DNA from: Rhodobium orientis | GTDB taxonomy: Bacteria > Pseudomonadota > Alphaproteobacteria > Rhizobiales > Rhodobiaceae | Assembly (NCBI RefSeq): GCF_003258835.1 | Contig: NZ_NPEV01000009.1 | Coordinates: 1-64,000 of the forward strand | Length of the DNA stretch: 64,000 nucleotides | Direction of reading: 5' to 3' | Shown here: one piece after another, positions 5,731 to 54,952 of the stretch | Numbering within the stretch: the stretch's first letter is position 1 | Layout of the letters: the number at the start of each line of letters is the position of its first letter | Notes under the pieces: model-generated | Database searches by the model: none | Told to the model about the DNA's origin: nothing | The model's input: only the letters and a program-made list of their open reading frames with translations | Position numbers and translations under genes: made by a program

Positions 5731-6187
5731 CGCGCCGACCCCTGCTCATGCTGGAAGGCACCGGCGGTCTCCGGCCCCTGTCGGTCATGACATTAACCGC
5801 AGGCGACGTCCAGATCGATCCGGTTGCAGACATCGGCCTTTCTAATTGCGACATGCATTCAGCGGGTTTTCGGCCCTTTCGGGCCTGCGGCGCGTCGCCG
5901 CTGGCCACTGGCTCGGGATGCCGGACGATGTGGCAGTCCGACGCCGCCGGCCGCCCGGATTCAGTAATCCAATGTATTCATATGCGCCAAGGAATGTACT
6001 TAACATCTTGTTATTAGTTATTGGCGACGATCTTTGTATGGAATCACAGATATACTATTGAGTATATCTTGGGCGTGCAAGCCTGCTTACGGTCGCGCCG
6101 GCTGTTCTTGCGACAGGGGCCTGCAAGCCGGCCTTCGCGCAACAACGCAACGCCGCCCTTCAGGGCGTGCATGTGGGACACTTCAAG
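5731..6187. other. Divergent intergenic region, soxB promoter / chemoreceptor 1 promoter
   Basis: No credible gene occurs here. Base composition changes sharply: 5960-6070 is much richer in A+T than the flanking coding DNA, as expected of a promoter zone. It contains the CtrA-like box at 6000-6014. I could not assign a sigma-70 promoter or a binding site for the GlxA-type regulator with confidence. Confidence 0.6.
6000..6014 (+). promoter_or_regulatory. CtrA-like box upstream of chemoreceptor 1
   Basis: TTAA (6000-6003), seven bases, then TTAT (6011-6014), one mismatch from the CtrA consensus TTAA-N7-TTAA. TTAA is scarce in this GC-rich window. The box lies about 175 bases before the chosen ATG, and the same arrangement occurs before the two paralogous receptors. 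Binding by CtrA is inferred. Confidence 0.45.
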
Positions 6188-8191
6188 ATGAAGAATTTCG
6201 CGATCTCCACCAAGGTCTTCGGCGGTTTCGCCATCGTCCTTGTCCTGCTCGTCGTCATCGGCGCGACCGGCGCGCTCAACCTGGAATCGGGCAACGACAG
6301 CTTCAAGCGCTACCGGGCCATCGCGCTGCAGACCAACCAGGCCGGCCGGGTGCAGGCAAACCTTCTGACGGCGCGGCTGGCGGTGAAGAATTTCATCATT
6401 GCGCCGTCGCCCGACAGCGTTGCCGCGTTCAACGACCGCGCCGGCAAGACGCGCGCGTTCAACGACACCCTCGGCACCCTCGTCAACAGCGCGGAAAAAA
6501 AGCAGGTCGTCGGCGACGTTCGCGACAAGCTGACGACGTACGGCAGCAACTTCGAAGAGGTCGTGCGGCTACAGGCGGAGCGTTCGGATCTGGTGGTCAA
6601 CACGCTCGACGAAGTCGGCCCGCAGATGGAGCGCAAGCTCACCGAGATCATGCAAAGCGCCTTTGACGACAAGGACGTCATGGCCGCCTACCAGGCGGGA
6701 ACGGTGCAGCGCAGTCTCTTGTTGATGCGGCTCTATGTGGTCAAGTTCCTGCTGGAGAACAGCGAGGAAGCATTTGCCCGGGTGCTGCAGGAATCGGCGG
6801 AGATGGCGAAGCACCGCGAGGCGATGCTGGCCGAACTGCAGAATCCGGGGCGGCGCCAGCTCGCCGAAGAGGTCGGCGCGCTGCACGCCACCTACGAGGC
6901 CGCCTTCCGCAAGGTTCATGACACGATCGGCGCGCGCAACGACATCATCAAGAACCGTCTCGACGTCATCGGCCCGGCGATCGCCGGCTCCATGGAAGAC
7001 CTCAAGCTCGCGATCAAGACCGAGCAGGACACGCTCGGACCCGAGGCGAGCATGGCGATGGACCGCGCGGTCATGATCACGGTCGCGGTCGCGGTGGTCA
7101 GCATCCTGCTCGGCCTCGTGGCCGCCTGGGTGATCGGCACCGGCATCGCCCGGCCGATCCGGGCGATGACGTCGGCCATGGGCCGGCTTGCCAATGGCGA
7201 CAAGGAGCTCGACATTCCGGGCCTCGACCGCAAGGACGAGGTCGGGTCGATGGCGGGCGCGGTCGAAGTGTTCCGGGAGAACATGATCAAGGCCGACGAG
7301 ATGGCGGCCCGCGAGGCCGCCGAGCTTGCCGCCCGCGAGGCGCGCGCCCGGCGCATCGAGGAGGTGACCCAGGCTTTCGATGCCGCGGTTTCCGACCTCC
7401 TCGGCAGCCTTGCGAACGCTTCGGAGGAGATGAAAAGCACGGCCACCTCGATGTCCGAGATCGCCCACACCACCAACGATCGCGCGACGAGCGTCGCCAG
7501 CGCGGCGGAGGAGGCCTCGACCAACGTTCAGACCGTGTCGGCGGCGACCGAGGAACTCTCAAGCTCCATCCACGAAATATCGCGCCAGGTGACGCAGTCG
7601 TCGCAGATCGCCGACAAGGCCGTTTCGCAGGCCGACACCACGGATGCGCAAGTGCAGCGCCTGGCCTCGGCCTCGCAGCATATCGGCGAGGTCATCGCGC
7701 TGATTTCGGAGATCGCCGAGCAGACCAACCTGTTGGCCCTGAACGCGACGATCGAAGCGGCGCGCGCCGGCGAGACCGGCAAGGGCTTTGCCGTGGTCGC
7801 TGCGGAGGTCAAGACGCTTGCCGGCCAGACGGCGAAGGCGACGGACGACATCCGCAAGCAGATCAGCGACATCCAGCTCGAAACCGAGGAGGCGGTCGCC
7901 GCCATCCAGCAGATCGGCGCGACGATCAAGGACATGAACGAGATCGCGCTCGGGATTTCCTCGGCCGTGGAGGAGCAGAACGCGGCGACGAACGAAATCG
8001 CCCGCAATGTGGAGCAGGCCGCGATCGGCACCCGCGAAGTCTCCTCGAACATCCTGGAAGTGACCCGCTCGGCCGGGCAGACCGGGGCGGCGGCAACGCA
8101 GGTCACCGGCGTTGCCGGCGACCTCGGCTCCAAGTCGGATCAGTTGCGCGCCGAGGTCGAGACCTTCCTGAGGAGCGTGCGCGCCGCGTGA
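6188..8191 (+). CDS. Methyl-accepting chemotaxis protein (paralogue 1 of 3)
   Basis: A 667-residue transmembrane chemoreceptor. A short cytoplasmic start ([13 protein letters not shown]) leads into TM1 (about residues 10-30). A ~250-residue all-helical periplasmic sensor follows, probably of the helical bimodular (HBM) type by length. TM2 (about 290-312), HAMP and a signalling domain come next, with the conserved tip [20 protein letters not shown]. It signals through CheA/CheW. A GTG at 6167 would add seven residues. I prefer the ATG at 6188 because paralogues align from this point. It is divergent from soxBDAG. The ligand is unknown. The position suggests, but does not show, sensing of methylated amines. 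Confidence 0.93.
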
Positions 8192-9750: not shown

Positions 9751-10191
9751 GTCGAGTGATTCGGTCTTGGATTGCCGTTTGCGGATGTATTCAATGCATA
9801 TATGTGAATGCGTCGAGCTGTCGCAGGGCTTTTGCGGGCGGGGCGATCCGGCCGGGCGTTGCCGCAGACAACCGCCGCCGGCAGGGACGGGCATCAAGTT
9901 CAGATATTTTTCGCAATTAATTCAATTATTTATTGGAACACTTCCGGCGGGCTCGCTCAAGAGGCTGGCGGTTCGTCGTATCCCTGACGGCCGTTTTCAG
10001 GGTCGCCGATAAAATACGTAGTTAACGGTTCATTATCCATTCCTGGAGATTCTAACTACGCAGTTTTAGCAGGCGGAGGAACGCCCGGATTCTGCACATG
10101 CCATCCCAAGCGGTTGGGAAACCCGTTTTTGAGTCAGGTACCCAACAAAATAAACAATCGGCCACCTCTCAAACCCAAGCGAGATAACAAG
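9751..10191. other. Intergenic region upstream of chemoreceptor 2
   Basis: No supported gene. The stretch around 9900-10070 is A+T-rich. It contains the inverted repeat CGTAGTTA/TAACTACG (10017-10024 and 10053-10060) and a CtrA-like box within it. A TTG codon at 10114 opens the same frame as the receptor but lacks a ribosome-binding site and family similarity, so I treat 10114-10191 as leader. Confidence 0.5.
10022..10036 (+). promoter_or_regulatory. CtrA-like box upstream of chemoreceptor 2
   Basis: TTAA (10022-10025), seven bases, TTAT (10033-10036), the same one-mismatch form as the box before chemoreceptor 1. It overlaps the left arm of an 8-bp inverted repeat (10017-10024 with 10053-10060). 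It lies about 155 bases before the preferred start codon. Confidence 0.45.
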
Positions 10192-12198
10192 GTGCTCAAG
10201 AACCTCAAGATTTCCACCAAGGTCTTTGGCGGATTCGCCATCGTCCTTGCCCTTCTCGTCCTGATCAGCCTGACCGGCGCCATCAACCTCATGGACGGCA
10301 ACGACAGCTTCAAGCGCTATCGCGACATCGCCAGGCAGAGCCTGCAAGCCGGCAACGTCCAGACCAACCTTCTGGAAACCCGTGTTGCCGTGCTGAACTT
10401 CCTGCGGGCTCCCTCCGAGGAGAACATCGCCACGGTCAAGGCCCGTGCCGGCACGACGCTCGAACTCAGCGAGCAGTTCGATGCGCTGGTGACCTCCGAA
10501 GAAAGGAAGAAAGTCATTGCCGGTACGGTCGGCGACATGACGACCTATCTGGCCGCTTTCGAGGACGTCACCAAGGCGCAGGCGACGCGCGACGCGCTTT
10601 TGACCAGCGTGCTCAACGTCAAGGGTCCGCAGATGGAGCGGAACCTGACCAAGATCATGCAGAGCGCCTATCAGGACAACGATGCCGGCGCCGCCTACCA
10701 TGCGGCCGCGGTGCAGCGCAATCTGCTCCTGATGCGCCTTTACCTGTTGAAGTTCATGGAGTCGAACGACGAGACGGCCTACAACCGCACGCTTGCCGAA
10801 TCGGCGGAGACGACGAAGAATCTCCAGTCGTTGCTGGGTGAATTGCAGAACCCGATGCGCCGCCGCCTCGCCAATGAGGTCATAGAGCTGCATACAGCCT
10901 ATGAGGAGGCCTTCAAGGGCATGCATGCGGCGATCCTGGCGCGCAATGCGCTGGTCCAGGACCGGCTCAACATCATCGGTCCGAAGGTCGCCAAGGAGAT
11001 GGAAGGTCTGCAGGCTTCGGTCGAGAAGGAGCAGGCGGTACTCGGTCCCGCGGCGAGCCAGGCAATGGAAACCGCCGTCTATGTCGCCGCTGGCGTGGCG
11101 TTCGTCGGCGTCGTCCTCGGCATCCTCGCCGCCTGGTTCATCGGCGTCGGCATCTCCCGCCCGATCGCCGCCATGACCGATGTCATGCGCAAGCTCGCCG
11201 GCGGCGACAAGACCGTCGACATCCCGGGTCTCGACCGCAAGGACGAGGTCGGCTCGATGGCCGGCGCCGTGGAGGTGTTCAAGGAGAACATGATCAAGGC
11301 CGACGAACTGGCCGCGAGCCAGGCGGAGGAACGCAAGGCCCGCGAGCAGCGCGCCCAGAAGATAGAGGATTTGACCAAGGGGTTCGATTCCAACGTCTCG
11401 GAGCTGCTGCAGGCGCTGAGCGCGGCCGCCAACGAGATGGAGAACACCGCGTCCTCCATGTCGGAAATCGCCAACGGCACCAACCAGCGGGCAACCACCG
11501 TCGCCAGCGCGGCGGAGGAAGCCTCGACCAACGTGCAGACGGTGTCGTCGGCGACCGAGGAGCTGTCCTCCTCGATCCAGGAGATCGCCCGCCAGGTGGC
11601 CCAGTCCTCGCAGATCGCCGAAAAGGCGGTGCAGCAGGCCGACCACACCGACGGTCAGGTGCAGAACCTTGCCGAGGCCGCGCAGCGGATCGGCGAGGTG
11701 GTCAGCCTGATCTCGGAAATCGCGGAACAGACCAATCTCCTCGCCCTCAACGCCACCATCGAGGCGGCCCGGGCCGGCGAGACCGGCAAGGGGTTCGCGG
11801 TGGTCGCGGCCGAGGTCAAGGAACTGGCCAGCCAGACGGCGAAGGCGACGGACGACATCCGCGCCCAGATCCTCGGCATCCAGACCGAGACCCAGGACGC
11901 GGTCGCCGCGATCCAGCAGATCGGCTCGACGATCAAGGACATGAACCAGATCACGGTCGGCATCGCCTCGGCGATGGAAGAACAGAACGCGGCGACCGAC
12001 GAGATCGCCCGCAACGTGGAACAGGCCGCGATCGGCACCCAGGAGGTCTCCTCCAACATCGTCCAGGTCACCCATGCGGCCGGCGAGACCGGCGCGGCGG
12101 CGACCCAGGTCACCGGCGTTGCCGGCGACCTCAACGCCAAATCGCTGCAGTTGAAGTCGGAAGTGGAGCAGTTCCTCGCCGGCGTCCGCGCCGCCTGA
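10192..12198 (+). CDS. Methyl-accepting chemotaxis protein (paralogue 2 of 3)
   Basis: A 668-residue receptor with the same plan as its neighbours: TM1 near residues 10-30, a long helical periplasmic sensor, TM2 near 290-312 ([20 protein letters not shown]), HAMP, and a signalling domain with the tip [20 protein letters not shown]. The start is uncertain. GTG 10192 gives [14 protein letters not shown] and matches the paralogues, whereas TTG 10114 would add 26 residues. The signalling half is nearly identical to paralogue 3, while the sensor half differs, suggesting duplication followed by change in ligand binding. It is followed by a strong terminator. Ligand unknown. Confidence 0.92.
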
Positions 12199-12495: not shown

Positions 12496-12620
12496 GTTTT
12501 CGCCCCAGAACGGAACAAGTTGTCTGCAAGCAGATGGCACGTAAAACAAAAGTACGCAGTAATAAAAATTACGAAGTTTTGCGACTTGCCGACGACAAAG
12601 ACATGCTTTCAATCAGGGCG

Positions 12621-14633
12621 ATGCCGGTGTTCAAGAACTTCAAGATCTCAACCAAGGTTTTCGGTGGATTTGCCGTGGTCCTTGCCTTTCTCGTGCTGAT
12701 CGGCCTCACGGCCGGTTTCAGCCTGTTGCAGAGCAATGGCGGGTTCCAGCGCTATCGGCACATCACCGACCAGACGAGCCATGCGGGCGCGGTGCGGGAC
12801 AACCTCCTGGAAACCCAGCTCTGGGCGCTGCGCTATCTCGAAGACCCGTCCGCGGAACGGCTCGCAACCGCCCGCAAGCGGGCGGCGGAGACGGTCCGGC
12901 TCGTCGATACGTTCGACGATCTCGTCAAGAGCGCTTCGAAGATCGCGATCATCAGGGGGGCCGAGACCGAACTGAAGGCCTTTCTGGAGGGTTTCGAGGA
13001 GGCCGTCCGGCTGCAGCAGCGGCGCGAGGACCTGGTCCGGAACACGCTCTACGATGTCGGGCCGAAGATCGAAGAGCGGCTGACGGAAATCGCGCGGCAG
13101 GTCAGGGCGGACCAGAACGCCGATGCCGTGTTCCTGACCGACGAGGTGCAGCGGCACCTGATGTCGATGCGCCTCAACGTGGCGAAGTTCCTGAACGATA
13201 ACGGGCAGGCCTCGTTCGAGGCCGTGATGCGGGACGCGGCCGCGGCACGCGACGTTTCGGACCGGCTGATGTCCGAGTTCCGGACCCCGGCGCTGCGCGA
13301 GCAGGTCCGGCAGGTGGCGGCGCTTCAGACGAGCTACGAGACGGGCTTCAGGGAGGTGCACGAAATCGCCCTGGCGCGCAACGCGATCGTGAGCGACACG
13401 CTCAACACGGTCGGCCCGAAGATCGCTGCGGATATGGAAGACCTGAAGACGGCGATCGAGACCGAGCAGGACACGATCGGCCCGGAAACCACCCGGATGA
13501 TGGAAAACGCGGTCTACATCACCGCCGCCGTCGGGGCGATCAGCGTCGTCCTCGGCCTTGTTTCCGCCTGGCTCATCGGCACCGGGATCTCCCGGCCGAT
13601 CATCGCGATCACCGATGTCATGCGCACGCTCGCCGACGGCGACAAGACCGTCGACATTCCGGGCCTCGAGCGCAAGGACGAGGTCGGGTCGATGGCCGGC
13701 GCCGTGGAAGTGTTCAAGGAGAACATGATTCGCAACGAGGAGATGGCCGCCCGCGAGATGGAGGCGGTGAAGGTCCGCGAGAAACGGGCGAAGGAGATCG
13801 AGGAGATGACCTCGAACTTCGACCGCAACGTCTCCGAACTCCTGCAATCGCTGAGCGCGGCCTCGACGGAAATGGAGAACACGGCCGCCTCCATGTCGGA
13901 AATCGCCAACGGCACCAACCAGCGGGCGACCACCGTCGCCAGCGCTGCGGAAGAGGCCTCGACCAATGTGCAGACGGTGTCGTCGGCGACCGAGGAACTC
14001 TCCTCCTCGATCCAGGAAATCGTCCGCCAGGTGGCCGAATCGTCCCAGATTGCCGAACGGGCGGTGAAGCAGGCCGACCACACCGACGGCCAGGTGCAGA
14101 ACCTCGCCGAGGCCGCACAGCGGATCGGCGAGGTGGTCAGCCTGATCTCGGAAATCGCCGCACAGACCAACCTCCTGGCGCTCAACGCCACCATCGAGGC
14201 GGCCCGGGCCGGCGAAACCGGCAAGGGCTTTGCCGTGGTCGCTGCCGAGGTCAAGGAGCTGGCCAACCAGACCTCCAAGGCGACGGACGACATCCGCGCC
14301 CAGATCCTCAGCATCCAGACGGAGACCGAGGAGGCCGTCGGCGCGATCCAGCAGATCGAGGCGACCATCCAGGAGATGAACCAGATCACCACCGGCATTG
14401 CCTCGGCGATGGAGCAGCAGAATGCGGCAACGGAGGAGATCGCCCGCAACGTGGAACAGGCCGCGATCGGCACGCGGGAGGTGTCCTCCAACATCGTGGA
14501 AGTGACCCATGCGGCCGGCGAAACCGGCGCGGCGGCGACCCAGGTCACCGGCGTCGCCGGCGACCTCAACGCCAAGTCGCTGCAGTTGAAGACCGAGGTG
14601 GAGCAGTTCCTGAGGGGCGTCCGCGCCGCCTGA
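12621..14633 (+). CDS. Methyl-accepting chemotaxis protein (paralogue 3 of 3)
   Basis: A 670-residue transmembrane chemoreceptor with TM1 (about 12-32), a helical periplasmic sensor of ~250 residues, TM2 (about 292-315), HAMP and a signalling domain (tip [20 protein letters not shown]). ATG 12621 ([12 protein letters not shown]) is preferred. GTG 12627 has better spacing from AGGG and matches paralogue 2. ATGs at 12534 and 12603 would add 29 or 6 residues without family similarity. The gene follows a perfect CtrA-like box and is closed by its own terminator. Its sensor is the most divergent of the three, with signalling almost identical to paralogue 2. Confidence 0.92.
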
Positions 14634-52362: not shown

Positions 52363-53004
52363 ATGTTCTTCCTGCCCGATCCCGCAGCGCTTGCCGCCTT
52401 CAGCCTTGCGACCGTCGTCCTGGCGCTGACCCCCGGCCCGGACATGACGTTTTTCCTCGGCAAGGCGATCGTCGCCGGCCGGCGCACCGGTTTCGTCGCC
52501 TTCGGCGGGGCGATCACCGGCATCCTCGTCCACACCCTGTTCGTCGCCGTCGGCCTTTCCGCGCTCCTGGCGGCGTCTGCCACCGCCTTCACCGCACTGA
52601 AGGTGGTCGGCGCGGCCTACCTGTTGTGGCTTGCCGTCGATGCCATCCGCCACGGCAGCGGCTTCGATCCGGCCTTGGCCGACGGCAAGCGCCAGAGCCT
52701 GAGGCGCGTGTTTCTCTCCGGCCTCGGCATCAACATCCTCAACCCGAAGATCATCCTCTTCTTCGTGACGTTCCTGCCGCAGTTCGTCTCGGCGGGAGAC
52801 CCGCAGGCGGCGGCCAAGCTCGTCTTCCTAGGCGCCTGGTTCATCGTCGTCGCCTCGGTAATCATCCTGCCGATGATCACCTTCGCCGATCTGATCGCGG
52901 CACGGCTGCGGCGCTCGCCGCGGATTCTGAGGGCCATCGACTGGCTGTTCGCCGGCGTCATGGCCGGTTTTGCCGTGCGCCTGGCGCTCGCCCGGGCGAA
53001 CTGA
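52363..53004 (+). CDS. LysE-family translocator
   Basis: A 213-residue inner-membrane exporter of the LysE/RhtB family with six predicted helices. The family motif LTPGPDMTFFLGKAIVAGRR lies at 24-43. A conserved FLSGLGINILNPKIILFFVTFLPQ segment follows in the middle. Members export basic or neutral amino acids or related compounds. The substrate cannot be read here. It starts at ATG 52363. Confidence 0.93.
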   Translation: MFFLPDPAALAAFSLATVVLALTPGPDMTFFLGKAIVAGRRTGFVAFGGAITGILVHTLFVAVGLSALLAASATAFTALKVVGAAYLLWLAVDAIRHGSGFDPALADGKRQSLRRVFLSGLGINILNPKIILFFVTFLPQFVSAGDPQAAAKLVFLGAWFIVVASVIILPMITFADLIAARLRRSPRILRAIDWLFAGVMAGFAVRLALARAN

Positions 53005-53127
53005 TCGCTTCGCACGGGCGAGACTGTTGCAGTTGTGTTGCATTCGCCTTGTCGGCCCCCAATATTTCCCGCATTTCCCGCATTTTCAGTAAGTATTAAC
53101 ACGGCACGCTTCGTATTTTACCGGGGT

Positions 53128-53142
53128 TTAATACTTCGATAA
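53128..53142 (+). promoter_or_regulatory. Weaker CtrA-like box before the globin-coupled receptor
   Basis: TTAA (53128-53131), seven bases, ATAA (53139-53142), followed by C. One half is perfect and the other has one mismatch. It lies about 60 bases before the ATG at 53201 in A+T-rich DNA. Confidence 0.3.
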
Positions 53143-53200
53143 CCAAATTGCTCAAGCATCAGGATATTTCCAGAGGGAAAATTACGGGGGGAAGAGCTCG

Positions 53201-54952
53201 ATGGCTCGTCTTGCAACACAGTCCAGGAATGGCGTCGCCGGCGATGACCTGACGGCGACGATTTCCGATTTCCTGGAAATGAACGGTGCGTCCGCCGGCA
53301 ACGGCAAGGCGCTGTGGCGCGCGCTGTCGTCGCGCATGCCGGCGATCCTGGAAACCTTCTACGGCGCCCTGGCCGACCGGCCCGAGCTTGCCGAAAAGCT
53401 CGGCGCCAACTGCGGCCGGGTCGAGGAGCTGAAGGCGACCCAGCAGCGCCACATGGAGTTCCTGCTCGACCACGGCCCGGGGCCGGACCTGGAGGAGCAG
53501 GCCAGGAAGATCGGCGAGGCCCATGTGCGGGCCGGCATCACGCCGCTGTGGTATCTCGCCGCCTATGGCCGGCTGTTCCACGACATGATCCCGGCGCTGG
53601 TTGCCGGCAACCGGTTGTCGCCGAAAAAGCAGACGCGGATGCTGCAGACGGCGGTCTCGCACATCTTCCTCGACATGGTGCTGGCCTATGACGCCTACCA
53701 GACCAGCATGATGGCCGAGACGGTGGACAAGAAGGAGCGCGAAAAGGACGTCCACAGCCTGCGCAAGCTCGCCCAGACGGTGCGCAACATCAACGATGTG
53801 ACGCTGAACATGGCGTATCTCTCCAACAACATCCGCGCGGCCAGCGACGGCGGCCAGGCGATTTCATCGGCCTCGGCGGAGCTGGTGGCCTCGATCCAGC
53901 AGATCGCCGCGACCAGCGACGGCACGGCGCAGGAGGCCGACACCACCCATTCGGCGATCGCCGACGGCCTGAAGTCCATGCAGGCGGTGTCGACGACCAT
54001 CAAGGACATCGCCGCAAGCTCGCAGCGCAGCGCCGACGACCTCACCGAACTGCACGAGGCGTCCGACCAGATCAGCGAGTTCCTGACCGTCATCGAGAGC
54101 ATCGCGGCCCAGACCAACCTCCTGGCGCTGAACGCGACCATCGAAGCCGCCCGCGCGGGCGAGGCGGGCAAGGGCTTTGCGGTCGTTGCCGCCGAGGTCA
54201 AGGAACTGGCGACCCAGACCGCCAAGGCGACGGAAGACATCGCCCAGCGCATCGAGGCGCTGAAGGGCGGCATGATGACGATCCGCGAATCCATCGAAAG
54301 CTCGCAGAACGCGGTGGAGAAGGGCGAGGAGACCATCACCGGCGCCAACGCCCTGATGGAGACGGTCGGCACCCAGATCGGCGATGTCTCCCACAAGATG
54401 CAGGAGATCTCGTCGATCCTGCAGCAGCAGCACGGCGCCAGCCAGGAGATCGCCGAGAGCATCACCCGCGTTGCCGACCTTGCCAACGAGAACGAACGGC
54501 GCTTGAGCGAGATGTCGGGCTCGCTGGACCACGCCAACGGCGCCTTCCTGGAGGACGCCAAGGCCTGGTTCGATGCCGATTCCGCGCAATCGCTCTGCGA
54601 GATGGCCAAGATCGACCATGTGATGTTCAAGAAGCGGATCGTCGACACGGTGACCGGGCGCGACAAGTGGCGGGCCGGTGAGGTGCCGGACCACCATTCC
54701 TGCCGGCTCGGCAAGTGGTACGACGCCATCACCGACGAGCGGATCCGCGCCCATCCGTCCTTCGTGGCGATGCGCGAGCCGCACAGGACCGTCCATGCGG
54801 CGGCGCGCGAGACGCTGGAAGCCTATGACCGCGGCGACAAGGCGGCGGTCGCCGCCGGCCTCGACCGGCTGGAGGCGGCGAGCATCGAGGTCATCGAGGC
54901 GCTCGAGGCCTTCTCGACGGCGCTCGACAGGGATCTGCAAAGGGCAGGCTGA
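53201..54952 (+). CDS. Globin-coupled methyl-accepting protein with C-terminal CZB domain
   Basis: A 583-residue soluble receptor. Residues ~20-170 form a sensor globin with the proximal-His helix [22 protein letters not shown] (His108). An MCP signalling domain follows (tip [19 protein letters not shown] near 303-321). The C-terminus is a chemoreceptor zinc-binding (CZB) domain with the ligand set His473, Cys501 (CRLGKWY), His528 and His532. No membrane helix is present. Globin-coupled MCPs of the HemAT type sense oxygen via heme. CZB domains bind zinc and can sense oxidants. Fusing both in one receptor is unusual. ATG 53201 follows GGGGGGAAGAG. Confidence 0.92.

What the first reader, a model, noticed from the sequence alone, without database searches (positions are those of the whole stretch)
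53201..54952. Globin-MCP-CZB receptor: heme and zinc sensors on one soluble chemoreceptor
The protein combines an N-terminal sensor globin (proximal His108), an MCP signalling module and a C-terminal CZB zinc domain with the full ligand set His473, Cys501, His528, His532. Globin-coupled MCPs sense O2, and CZB-containing receptors respond to zinc or oxidants such as hypochlorite. Having both would let one receptor weigh oxygen against oxidant or metal state. The combination is at least rare to my knowledge.
Basis: partly seen in the sequence, partly recalled or inferred. Interest (0 to 1): 0.62.

Follow-up and report, generated by a model that had tools for sequence, protein, structure and literature searches.

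The report
Soluble chemoreceptor with globin and CZB
This gene encodes a soluble bacterial navigation receptor that carries a heme-globin oxygen-sensor domain and a zinc/redox-sensor domain on one chain; [quoted passage not shown]

Summary
Window 53201-54952(+) is an intact 583-aa ORF with Protoglobin, MCP and CZB domains over Pfam cut-offs. "Rare" does not hold: in 249 genomes of the order, 23 of 76 CZB places share a frame with a listed Protoglobin match (21 genomes, 9 families). Globin is already listed among ligand-binding domains of CZB proteins (PMC8262984, Fig. 6 legend). New to my searches: (i) 14 of those 23 end in a PilZ-type extension, and Azospirillum and Acidicaldus have the parts in another order; (ii) five relatives lost the heme histidine but keep all zinc ligands; (iii) globin and CZB lie at the same end of the predicted receptor hairpin. 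The window protein has no PilZ. Most likely, a direct O2 input (heme) and a Zn2+/redox input (CZB) converge on one receptor that feeds the Che pathway. Heme and zinc binding are inferred, not measured.

The parts
53201..54952 (+). globin-MCP-CZB soluble chemoreceptor gene, 583 aa
53267..53707 (+). Protoglobin / globin-coupled sensor domain (aa 23-169)
   Evidence: Pfam 77.4 bits; PDB sequence match to HemAT; predicted fold vs globin-coupled sensor domains Z 16.4-19.1
53360..53362 (+). Tyr54, position of HemAT Tyr70 in the distal pocket
   Evidence: alignment; Tyr in 26 of 27 aligned proteins
53438..53440 (+). Thr80, position of HemAT Thr95; Thr in 3 and Ala in 19 of 27 aligned proteins
53522..53524 (+). 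His108, proximal heme ligand by homology to HemAT His123
   Evidence: invariant 27 of 27
53933..54481 (+). MCP signalling domain (aa 245-427), tip at aa 320-326
54617..54814 (+). CZB zinc-binding domain (aa 473-538)
54617..54619 (+). His473, zinc ligand by homology
   Evidence: invariant 27 of 27
54701..54703 (+). Cys501, zinc ligand and redox cysteine by homology (motif CRLGKWY)
   Evidence: invariant 27 of 27
54782..54784 (+). His528, zinc ligand by homology
   Evidence: invariant 27 of 27
54794..54796 (+). His532, zinc ligand by homology
   Evidence: invariant 27 of 27
53005..53200 (+). 196-bp upstream intergenic region with a purine-rich stretch (gggggaag) just before the ATG
   Evidence: read directly; promoter not tested
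52363..53004 (+). upstream neighbour, LysE-type translocator
   Evidence: Pfam; kept in a same-genus genome at 97% identity
55042..56481 (-). convergent downstream neighbour, leuC-like (name by recognition, no family search)
   Evidence: kept in a same-genus genome at 96% identity

Best explanation
It is a soluble cytoplasmic chemoreceptor with two sensory inputs. Shown by sequence and prediction: a globin-coupled sensor at the N-terminus, a full MCP hairpin, and a CZB domain at the C-terminus; the globin leaves off and the CZB begins about equally far from the hairpin tip (150 and 147 residues), so both should lie at the base. Inferred: the receptor is a homodimer; heme on His108 binds O2 (or another diatomic gas); Zn2+ sits on His473/Cys501/His528/His532 and leaves when free zinc falls or the cysteine is oxidised; both changes are felt at the base of the same helical bundle and change CheA activity at the tip, through the CheA/CheW/CheY set that this genome encodes. 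The likely behaviour is aerotaxis or redox taxis in which the zinc/redox state sets or confirms the response to O2. In relatives with a C-terminal PilZ domain, c-di-GMP would be a third input at the same end.
For: Domains and ligands. Fold: the predicted globin matches globin-coupled sensor domains (AfGcHK 5ohe Z 19.1; HemAT 1or4 Z 17.7) and model residues 166-462 align with the MCP hairpin 2ch7 (Z 15.0, 297 residues, rmsd 4.5). The spacing from tip motif to CZB Cys is 183 residues in every one of the 29 (of 33) proteins whose tip matched my pattern. Output machinery: CheA (Hpt, dimerisation, HATPase, two CheW stretches, receiver), CheW and a receiver protein on contig C189; a FlgE-type hook protein, FlgK and a protein with a flagellin C-terminal domain on C193; 21 MCP places over cut-off. 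Conservation: 27 of 27 keep the heme His and all zinc ligands. Literature: HemAT globin and O2 (PMC13401364, passages); CZB and Zn2+/redox/O2 taxis (PMC13370339; PMC8262984, passages and section 11 part 1).
Against: I found no heme, zinc, O2 or behavioural measurement on a member of this family (searches listed under Tried and rejected). Five diverged relatives have lost the heme histidine and keep the CZB, so heme sensing is dispensable in those. No solved CZB matched the window's CZB significantly by sequence. In the full-length model DSSP draws residues 201-456 as one helix, the turn is not resolved, and pTM is 0.53; unrelated long coiled coils score nearly as well as the MCP hairpins (7a0g Z 14.8, Smc 5xg2 Z 14.0), so the same-end placement rests mainly on homology to MCPs. 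The dimer was not modelled. No Flagellin_N match in the genome is over its cut-off (0 of 2).
Confidence: 0.66

Rival explanations
1. The CZB is the working sensor and the globin is a structural or heme-free input (for example a hydrophobic pocket), with heme optional.
For: Five of six diverged relatives (L094, L097, L098, L105, L110) have Leu or Ile in place of the heme His, yet all six keep the four CZB ligands; all six lie inside the 38-row globin-CZB clade of the MCP-CZB tree. HemAT of B. subtilis senses ethanol through its globin without heme (PMC7542364, start of abstract seen in the listing).
Against: In the 27 proteins with Pfam Protoglobin, the window's included, His108, Gln81, His84, Tyr118 and Tyr122 are invariant and Tyr54 is kept in 26.
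Confidence: 0.12
2. The globin is the working O2 sensor and the CZB zinc is a fixed structural site that stabilises the dimer.
For: Globin MCPs exist without a CZB (30 such frames). Zinc affinity of the E. coli DgcZ CZB is subfemtomolar (PMC8262984, passage), which could make the site non-exchanging.
Against: CZB domains in TlpD, DgcZ and McpA are reported as sensors (PMC8262984, PMC13370339); the Cys is invariant here, whereas a structural site could use other ligands.
Confidence: 0.1
3. Both domains sense, but act as independent additive inputs with no cross-talk.
For: Globin and CZB also exist on separate MCPs, and a single origin of the pairing is rejected on the MCP-CZB module, as expected of modular domains.
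Against: The inferred base-end placement and the fixed 183-residue spacing favour contact; indirect only.
Confidence: 0.12

Closest known systems
HemAT (Bacillus subtilis) and other globin-coupled MCPs
   Same: N-terminal globin with proximal His, distal Tyr and Thr, followed by an MCP hairpin
   Different: HemAT is described as globin, linker and signalling domain only (passage); the window protein adds a CZB, and its globin clade is apart from 30 globin-MCPs of the order without CZB
TlpD (Helicobacter) / McpA (Salmonella) soluble CZB chemoreceptors
   Same: soluble MCP with C-terminal CZB, 3 His + 1 Cys
   Different: has an N-terminal globin; its MCP-CZB module lies outside the group that holds all 15 short CZB-MCP rows of the tree, among them the one in its own genome (L006); TlpD and McpA themselves were not in the tree
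CZB proteins with variable ligand-binding domains, PMC8262984 Fig. 6A
   Same: 'globin' is listed there among the observed domains (legend)
   Different: figures are not held, so which subgroup and how many is not known to me; no globin-bearing member was characterised in what I read
PilZ-bearing aerotaxis receptors of Azospirillum brasilense (Tlp1, Aer), PMC6406031
   Same: MCP with a C-terminal PilZ that tunes aerotaxis, like the PilZ-bearing relatives of the window protein (passages)
   Different: globin and CZB have 0 occurrences in that paper; the window protein itself has no PilZ
PAS-globin MCP of Corallococcus coralloides, PMC6194562
   Same: two O2-related sensor domains on one MCP, proposed as a more effective aerotaxis receptor (passages)
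   Different: the second domain is PAS, not CZB; CZB is mentioned there only as a domain associated with MCPs

Membership tests
Globin-coupled sensor (Protoglobin-type) | Protoglobin-type globin at the N-terminus over the curated cut-off | tested here: met
   77.4 vs 25 bits; predicted fold Z 16.4-19.1 to globin-coupled sensor domains
Globin-coupled sensor (Protoglobin-type) | proximal heme His | tested here: met
   His108 on HemAT His123 by counting along the alignment; 27 of 27
Globin-coupled sensor (Protoglobin-type) | heme bound, gas bound | not testable with these tools
   needs purified protein
CZB-domain chemoreceptor | CZB domain over cut-off with 3 His + 1 Cys | tested here: met
   52.6 vs 29.4 bits; ligands 27 of 27
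CZB-domain chemoreceptor | match to a solved CZB | tested here: inconclusive
   no significant phmmer hit for the window's CZB; a relative's CZB-PilZ fragment (L129) matches the DgcZ CZB 3t9o, E 4.4e-3, TM 0.70 by target
CZB-domain chemoreceptor | zinc bound and exchanged | not testable with these tools
   needs purified protein
Cytoplasmic MCP | MCP signalling domain and conserved tip | tested here: met
   137.7 bits; tip GEAGKGF at 320
Cytoplasmic MCP | no membrane span | tested here: met
   maximum 19-residue hydropathy 1.17; no dedicated predictor run
PilZ-coupled chemoreceptor | PilZ domain | tested here: not met
   window protein ends 82 aa after Cys501; no PilZ hit at E up to 1. Some relatives have it
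Short soluble CZB-MCPs of the order ('TlpD-like' is my label) | MCP-CZB module in the same clade | tested here: not met
   window row sits in a 38-row clade (99*) apart from all 15 short CZB-MCP rows of the tree; TlpD itself was not in the tree

The most novel reading that the evidence does not exclude
A recurrently assembled class of integrating chemoreceptor in which heme-O2, Zn2+/redox and, in many members, c-di-GMP are read at the same base end of one MCP hairpin. Zinc load or c-di-GMP would set the gain of the O2 response. The class was assembled more than once, in two domain orders (globin-MCP-CZB-PilZ and globin-MCP-PilZ-CZB), with the CZB the fixed element and the heme or PilZ input gained or lost around it.
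Probability: 0.3. Interest if true: 0.72.

Novelty: new variant of a known kind. Interest (0 to 1): 0.46.

Why it matters
Whether CZB domains sense oxidants directly, or sense O2 and redox through the zinc pool, is not settled (PMC8262984 and the preprint PMC13370339). A receptor with a direct O2 sensor and a CZB on one chain lets both routes be tested in one protein with two point mutants, and natural relatives without the heme His are ready-made controls. The four-domain relatives would tie O2, zinc/redox and c-di-GMP to one motility decision.

Tried and rejected
Rarity of the globin+CZB pairing: rejected. The phylum survey (398 genomes) gave CZB in 146 and Protoglobin in 123, but both row lists were cut, so pairings there cannot be counted; among the listed rows I saw no frame with both outside the order. 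Single origin of the pairing: rejected on the MCP-CZB module (p-AU 3e-56 against all other rows; 6e-8 when the non-globin rows nested in the order's clade were set free), not rejected on the globin (p-AU 0.163), so domain swaps remain possible. These groups were named after the first tree had been seen. Rows L090, L091, L092 and L147 have long branches in the globin trees and are unsure. NCBIfam: no model over its own cut-off for the whole protein.

PilZ: not every extended relative has a Pfam PilZ hit. In one search, 3 of the 8 extended globin-CZB proteins tested had it at E up to 0.001, 1 of 3 (L138 yes, L129 and L139 no at E up to 0.01); over A1, 11 of 27 at E up to 0.01, where 14 have the extension. 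For L129 the PilZ reading rests on motif, alignment and predicted fold.

Rows dropped: L094 and L098 from the first globin tree; those two and L002 from the second; L076 from the MCP-CZB trees (its tip reads IESARAGEA and missed my pattern); L023, L025, L030, L107 and L120 did not match my CZB-cysteine pattern and were not classed; L121 (no MCP tip) was left out; L031 failed the pattern and L028 and L032 were duplicates; L114, L119, L018, L011, L028, L031 and L032 were not put into the tree. Of the 19 long CZB frames (526 aa or more) without a listed globin in the order survey, 18 were scanned. Lengths of relatives are stop-to-stop frames, not start-to-stop.

Literature searches for the pairing or the triple (10 of 10 used) led to the legend in PMC8262984 and to no characterised globin-CZB or globin-CZB-PilZ receptor in the passages I read. 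PMC7390727, PMC8466855, PMC8846402, PMC12442639, PMC8547431 and PMC7617929 were searched for terms only. Most subscription papers, including the first CZB description (recalled; not held), could not be searched, and supplements were not open to me, so this is no proof of absence.

Full report
OBSERVATION. The ORF at 53201-54952(+) is intact, 583 aa. Pfam finds Protoglobin at residues 23-169 (77.4 bits, cut-off 25), MCPsignal at 245-427 (137.7 bits) and CZB at 473-538 (52.6 bits, cut-off 29.4). The globin's best solved relative by sequence is HemAT of B. subtilis (E 1.2e-5); counting along that alignment, window Tyr54, Thr80, His84 and His108 fall on HemAT Tyr70, Thr95, His99 and His123. Tyr70, Thr95 and His123 are the pocket residues named in the aerotaxis review PMC13401364 (passages).

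HOW COMMON. In 249 genomes drawn from the same order, CZB has 76 places in 51 genomes (75 over cut-off) and Protoglobin is present in 97 genomes (its row list was cut at 150). In 23 of the 76 CZB places a listed Protoglobin match lies in the same open frame (same contig, strand and frame length); these are in 21 genomes and 9 families, a lower bound. I fetched these frames (the window's own was at hand) and 19 further long CZB frames without a listed globin. Of these 19, 18 could be scanned with an HMM built from the window protein and 26 relatives, and 6 carry a diverged globin (L110, L111, L098, L105, L097, L094; 27 to 87 bits). Across the class (289 genomes, complete lists) CZB has 48 places in 34 genomes, of which 6 places in 4 genomes share a frame with Protoglobin; two of these genomes are from the same order and two (G299, G359) from elsewhere. 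So the pairing is a regular feature of this order and occasional outside it. A scan of named genomes with the globin profile gave 26 loci: 24 carry MCP and CZB in frame by motif (Pfam confirms the 9 of them that were scanned), from Stappia, Cohaesibacter, Pinisolibacter, Siculibacillus, Azospirillum, Acidicaldus and less closely named records; L136 is cut by its contig end, and L144 is a globin-MCP without CZB. Eleven of the 24 lie on contigs of the same length as survey contigs, so the two sets overlap. For scale, PMC8466855 gives CZB as 8% and protoglobin as 7% of ligand-binding domains in one class of cytoplasmic receptors (passage).

CONSERVATION. In the alignment of the window protein with 26 survey proteins (A1), Pfam finds Protoglobin, MCPsignal and CZB in 27 of 27 and PilZ in 11 of 27 at E up to 0.01. 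His108, Gln81, His84, Tyr118, Tyr122 and the four zinc ligands are invariant (27 of 27); Tyr54 is kept in 26; position 80 is Thr in 3 (the window's among them) and Ala in 19. Most of these relatives thus lack the HemAT Thr95 equivalent, and gas preference may differ among members. Of the six diverged proteins, five have Leu or Ile where the heme His should be (read from the alignment; L111 keeps His) and all six keep the zinc ligands. Four of the five group with L083 and L087 (support 92) and L110 with L086, L088 and L111 (100*), all inside the globin-CZB clade, so they look like derived losses of heme binding, in two places, with the CZB retained.

A THIRD INPUT IN RELATIVES. Fourteen of the 23 order-survey proteins continue 83-97 aa beyond the CZB end that I set at 75 residues after the Cys, and 14 of 14 carry RxxxR followed by [DN]xSxxG 21-26 residues on; shuffled copies of the same tails do so (10-35 residues on) in 0.35-1.4%. 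Of the 24 named CZB loci, 13 have the same extension with both motifs (aligned). Pfam PilZ is over its cut-off in L069, L077 and L085, 3 of the 8 extended proteins tested, and in L138, 1 of the 3 tested (L129 and L139 gave no PilZ hit there). The predicted structure of the CZB-PilZ fragment of Stappia stellulata (L129; mean pLDDT 81) is helices followed by six strands, and Foldseek matches it to the DgcZ CZB (3t9o, E 4.4e-3, TM 0.70 by target) and to PilZ domains such as 4i86 and 8u0i (E 7.5e-3 and 1.7e-2); no match reached E 0.001. In Azospirillum oleiclasticum (L146) the order is globin-MCP-PilZ-CZB, with PilZ over the cut-off; Acidicaldus (L147) shows the same order with PilZ below the cut-off (18.8 against 22.5 bits; its contig holds a run of N). 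The window protein has no such extension.

ORIGIN. In the globin tree, 27 of 31 globin-CZB rows form one side of a branch (97/94), apart from 30 globin-MCPs without CZB; in a quicker tree with three rows added and L002 left out, the same split has support 88.8, not starred. In the MCP-CZB tree the order's globin-CZB proteins (L076 not included) lie in one 38-row clade (99*) with ten CZB-MCPs that have no recognised globin; all 15 short CZB-MCP rows, the window genome's own (L006) among them, lie elsewhere. One clade for all globin-CZB proteins is rejected on the MCP-CZB module (p-AU 3e-56 against all other rows, 6e-8 with the nested non-globin rows set free) but not on the globin (p 0.163). 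The pairing was therefore assembled or swapped more than once; which of the two is open.

GEOMETRY. The AlphaFold model (mean pLDDT 85.4, pTM 0.53, 23 sequences) has a globin fold at 14-174 (Z 19.1 to AfGcHK, 17.7 to HemAT). Model residues 166-462 align with the hairpin of 2ch7 (Z 15.0, 297 residues, rmsd 4.5), but unrelated coiled coils come close (7a0g Z 14.8, 5xg2 Z 14.0) and DSSP draws 201-456 as one helix, so the hairpin rests mainly on homology to MCPs. From globin end (170) to tip (320) is 150 residues and from tip (326) to the first zinc ligand 147 (end points chosen by me), and the tip-to-Cys spacing is 183 in 29 of 33 proteins, the other four lacking the tip pattern. Both sensors should therefore sit at the base of the same hairpin. 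That they touch is inference; no dimer was modelled.

SURROUNDINGS. Upstream on the same strand are a DsbA-like and a LysE-type gene; downstream, convergent, are genes I recognise as leuC and rplS. A same-genus genome (G060) keeps the receptor (95% identity) with homologues of argG, a PAP2-like gene, the DsbA-like gene, LysE, leuC and rplS around it. Another same-genus genome (G012) has two 44-45% relatives without these neighbours in the 11.5-12 kb fetched. CheW-domain matches in the genome lie only on contig C189, with CheA and a receiver protein beside them. FlgE-type, FlgK and flagellin C-terminal-domain proteins are on C193, though no Flagellin_N match is over its cut-off. There are 21 MCP places over cut-off. 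So this is probably an orphan receptor of a single flagellar chemotaxis system.

MECHANISM. Shown: domains, ligands, conservation; base-end placement by spacing and prediction. Taken from the literature: globin MCPs bind O2 (PMC13401364, passages); the CZB Cys reacts with HOCl and zinc is released (PMC8262984, passages and section 11 part 1); Salmonella McpA, a CZB receptor, drives attraction to O2 and oxidants, proposed to act through falling soluble Zn2+ (PMC13370339, preprint, abstract and sections 10 and 12). In that preprint a Cys mutant still moved to O2, with a more diffuse cell population, so the role of the Cys in the O2 response is not simple. Inferred: that the window protein binds both cofactors, and that the CZB adjusts or confirms the O2 signal. 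If the preprint is right, the two domains report O2 by a direct route and by a zinc route.

NOVELTY. Not a new kind: both halves are known, and globin is listed among CZB-protein domains in PMC8262984. New to my searches: the recurrence and conservation in this order, the PilZ-bearing versions in two domain orders, and the heme-less derivatives with intact CZB. The aerotaxis review of July 2026 has 0 occurrences of CZB or zinc, and the CZB preprint has 0 of globin or PilZ.

CHECK.

Noticed in passing
L067-L072, L077-L080, L083-L085, L087; L129, L130, L132 and others: Globin-MCP-CZB receptors with a C-terminal PilZ-type extension carrying RxxxR and [DN]xSxxG: a possible third input (c-di-GMP).
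   Followed up: yes
L146 (Azospirillum oleiclasticum), L147 (Acidicaldus organivorans): Globin-MCP-PilZ-CZB: the same four parts in another order (PilZ below cut-off in L147).
   Followed up: partly
L094, L097, L098, L105, L110: Globin-CZB-type receptors whose globin has Leu/Ile instead of the proximal His while the CZB ligands are intact.
   Followed up: partly
L102 109-2106(-): MCP-CZB-PilZ protein with no recognised globin N-terminal to its MCP domain.
   Followed up: no
window 6167-8191, 10114-12198, 12534-14633 (+): Three similar MCPs in a row (4HB_MCP, HAMP and MCPsignal hits in the first and third, which were the two scanned; 4HB below cut-off in the third), probably tandem duplicates.
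   Followed up: partly
L003, L004, L005 (genome contigs C166, C178, C94): Three related short protoglobin frames (165-182 aa) in the same genome, partners unknown; a fourth, L002 (236 aa), is more distant.
   Followed up: no
genome contig C173:56741-56938(-), L006: The genome's second CZB protein, a short MCP-CZB without a recognised globin.
   Followed up: partly
L093 302-2812(-): NIT (nitrate/nitrite sensing)-HAMP-MCP-CZB receptor; other scanned CZB-MCPs carry 4HB or dCache domains, so CZB is added to several sensor types.
   Followed up: no
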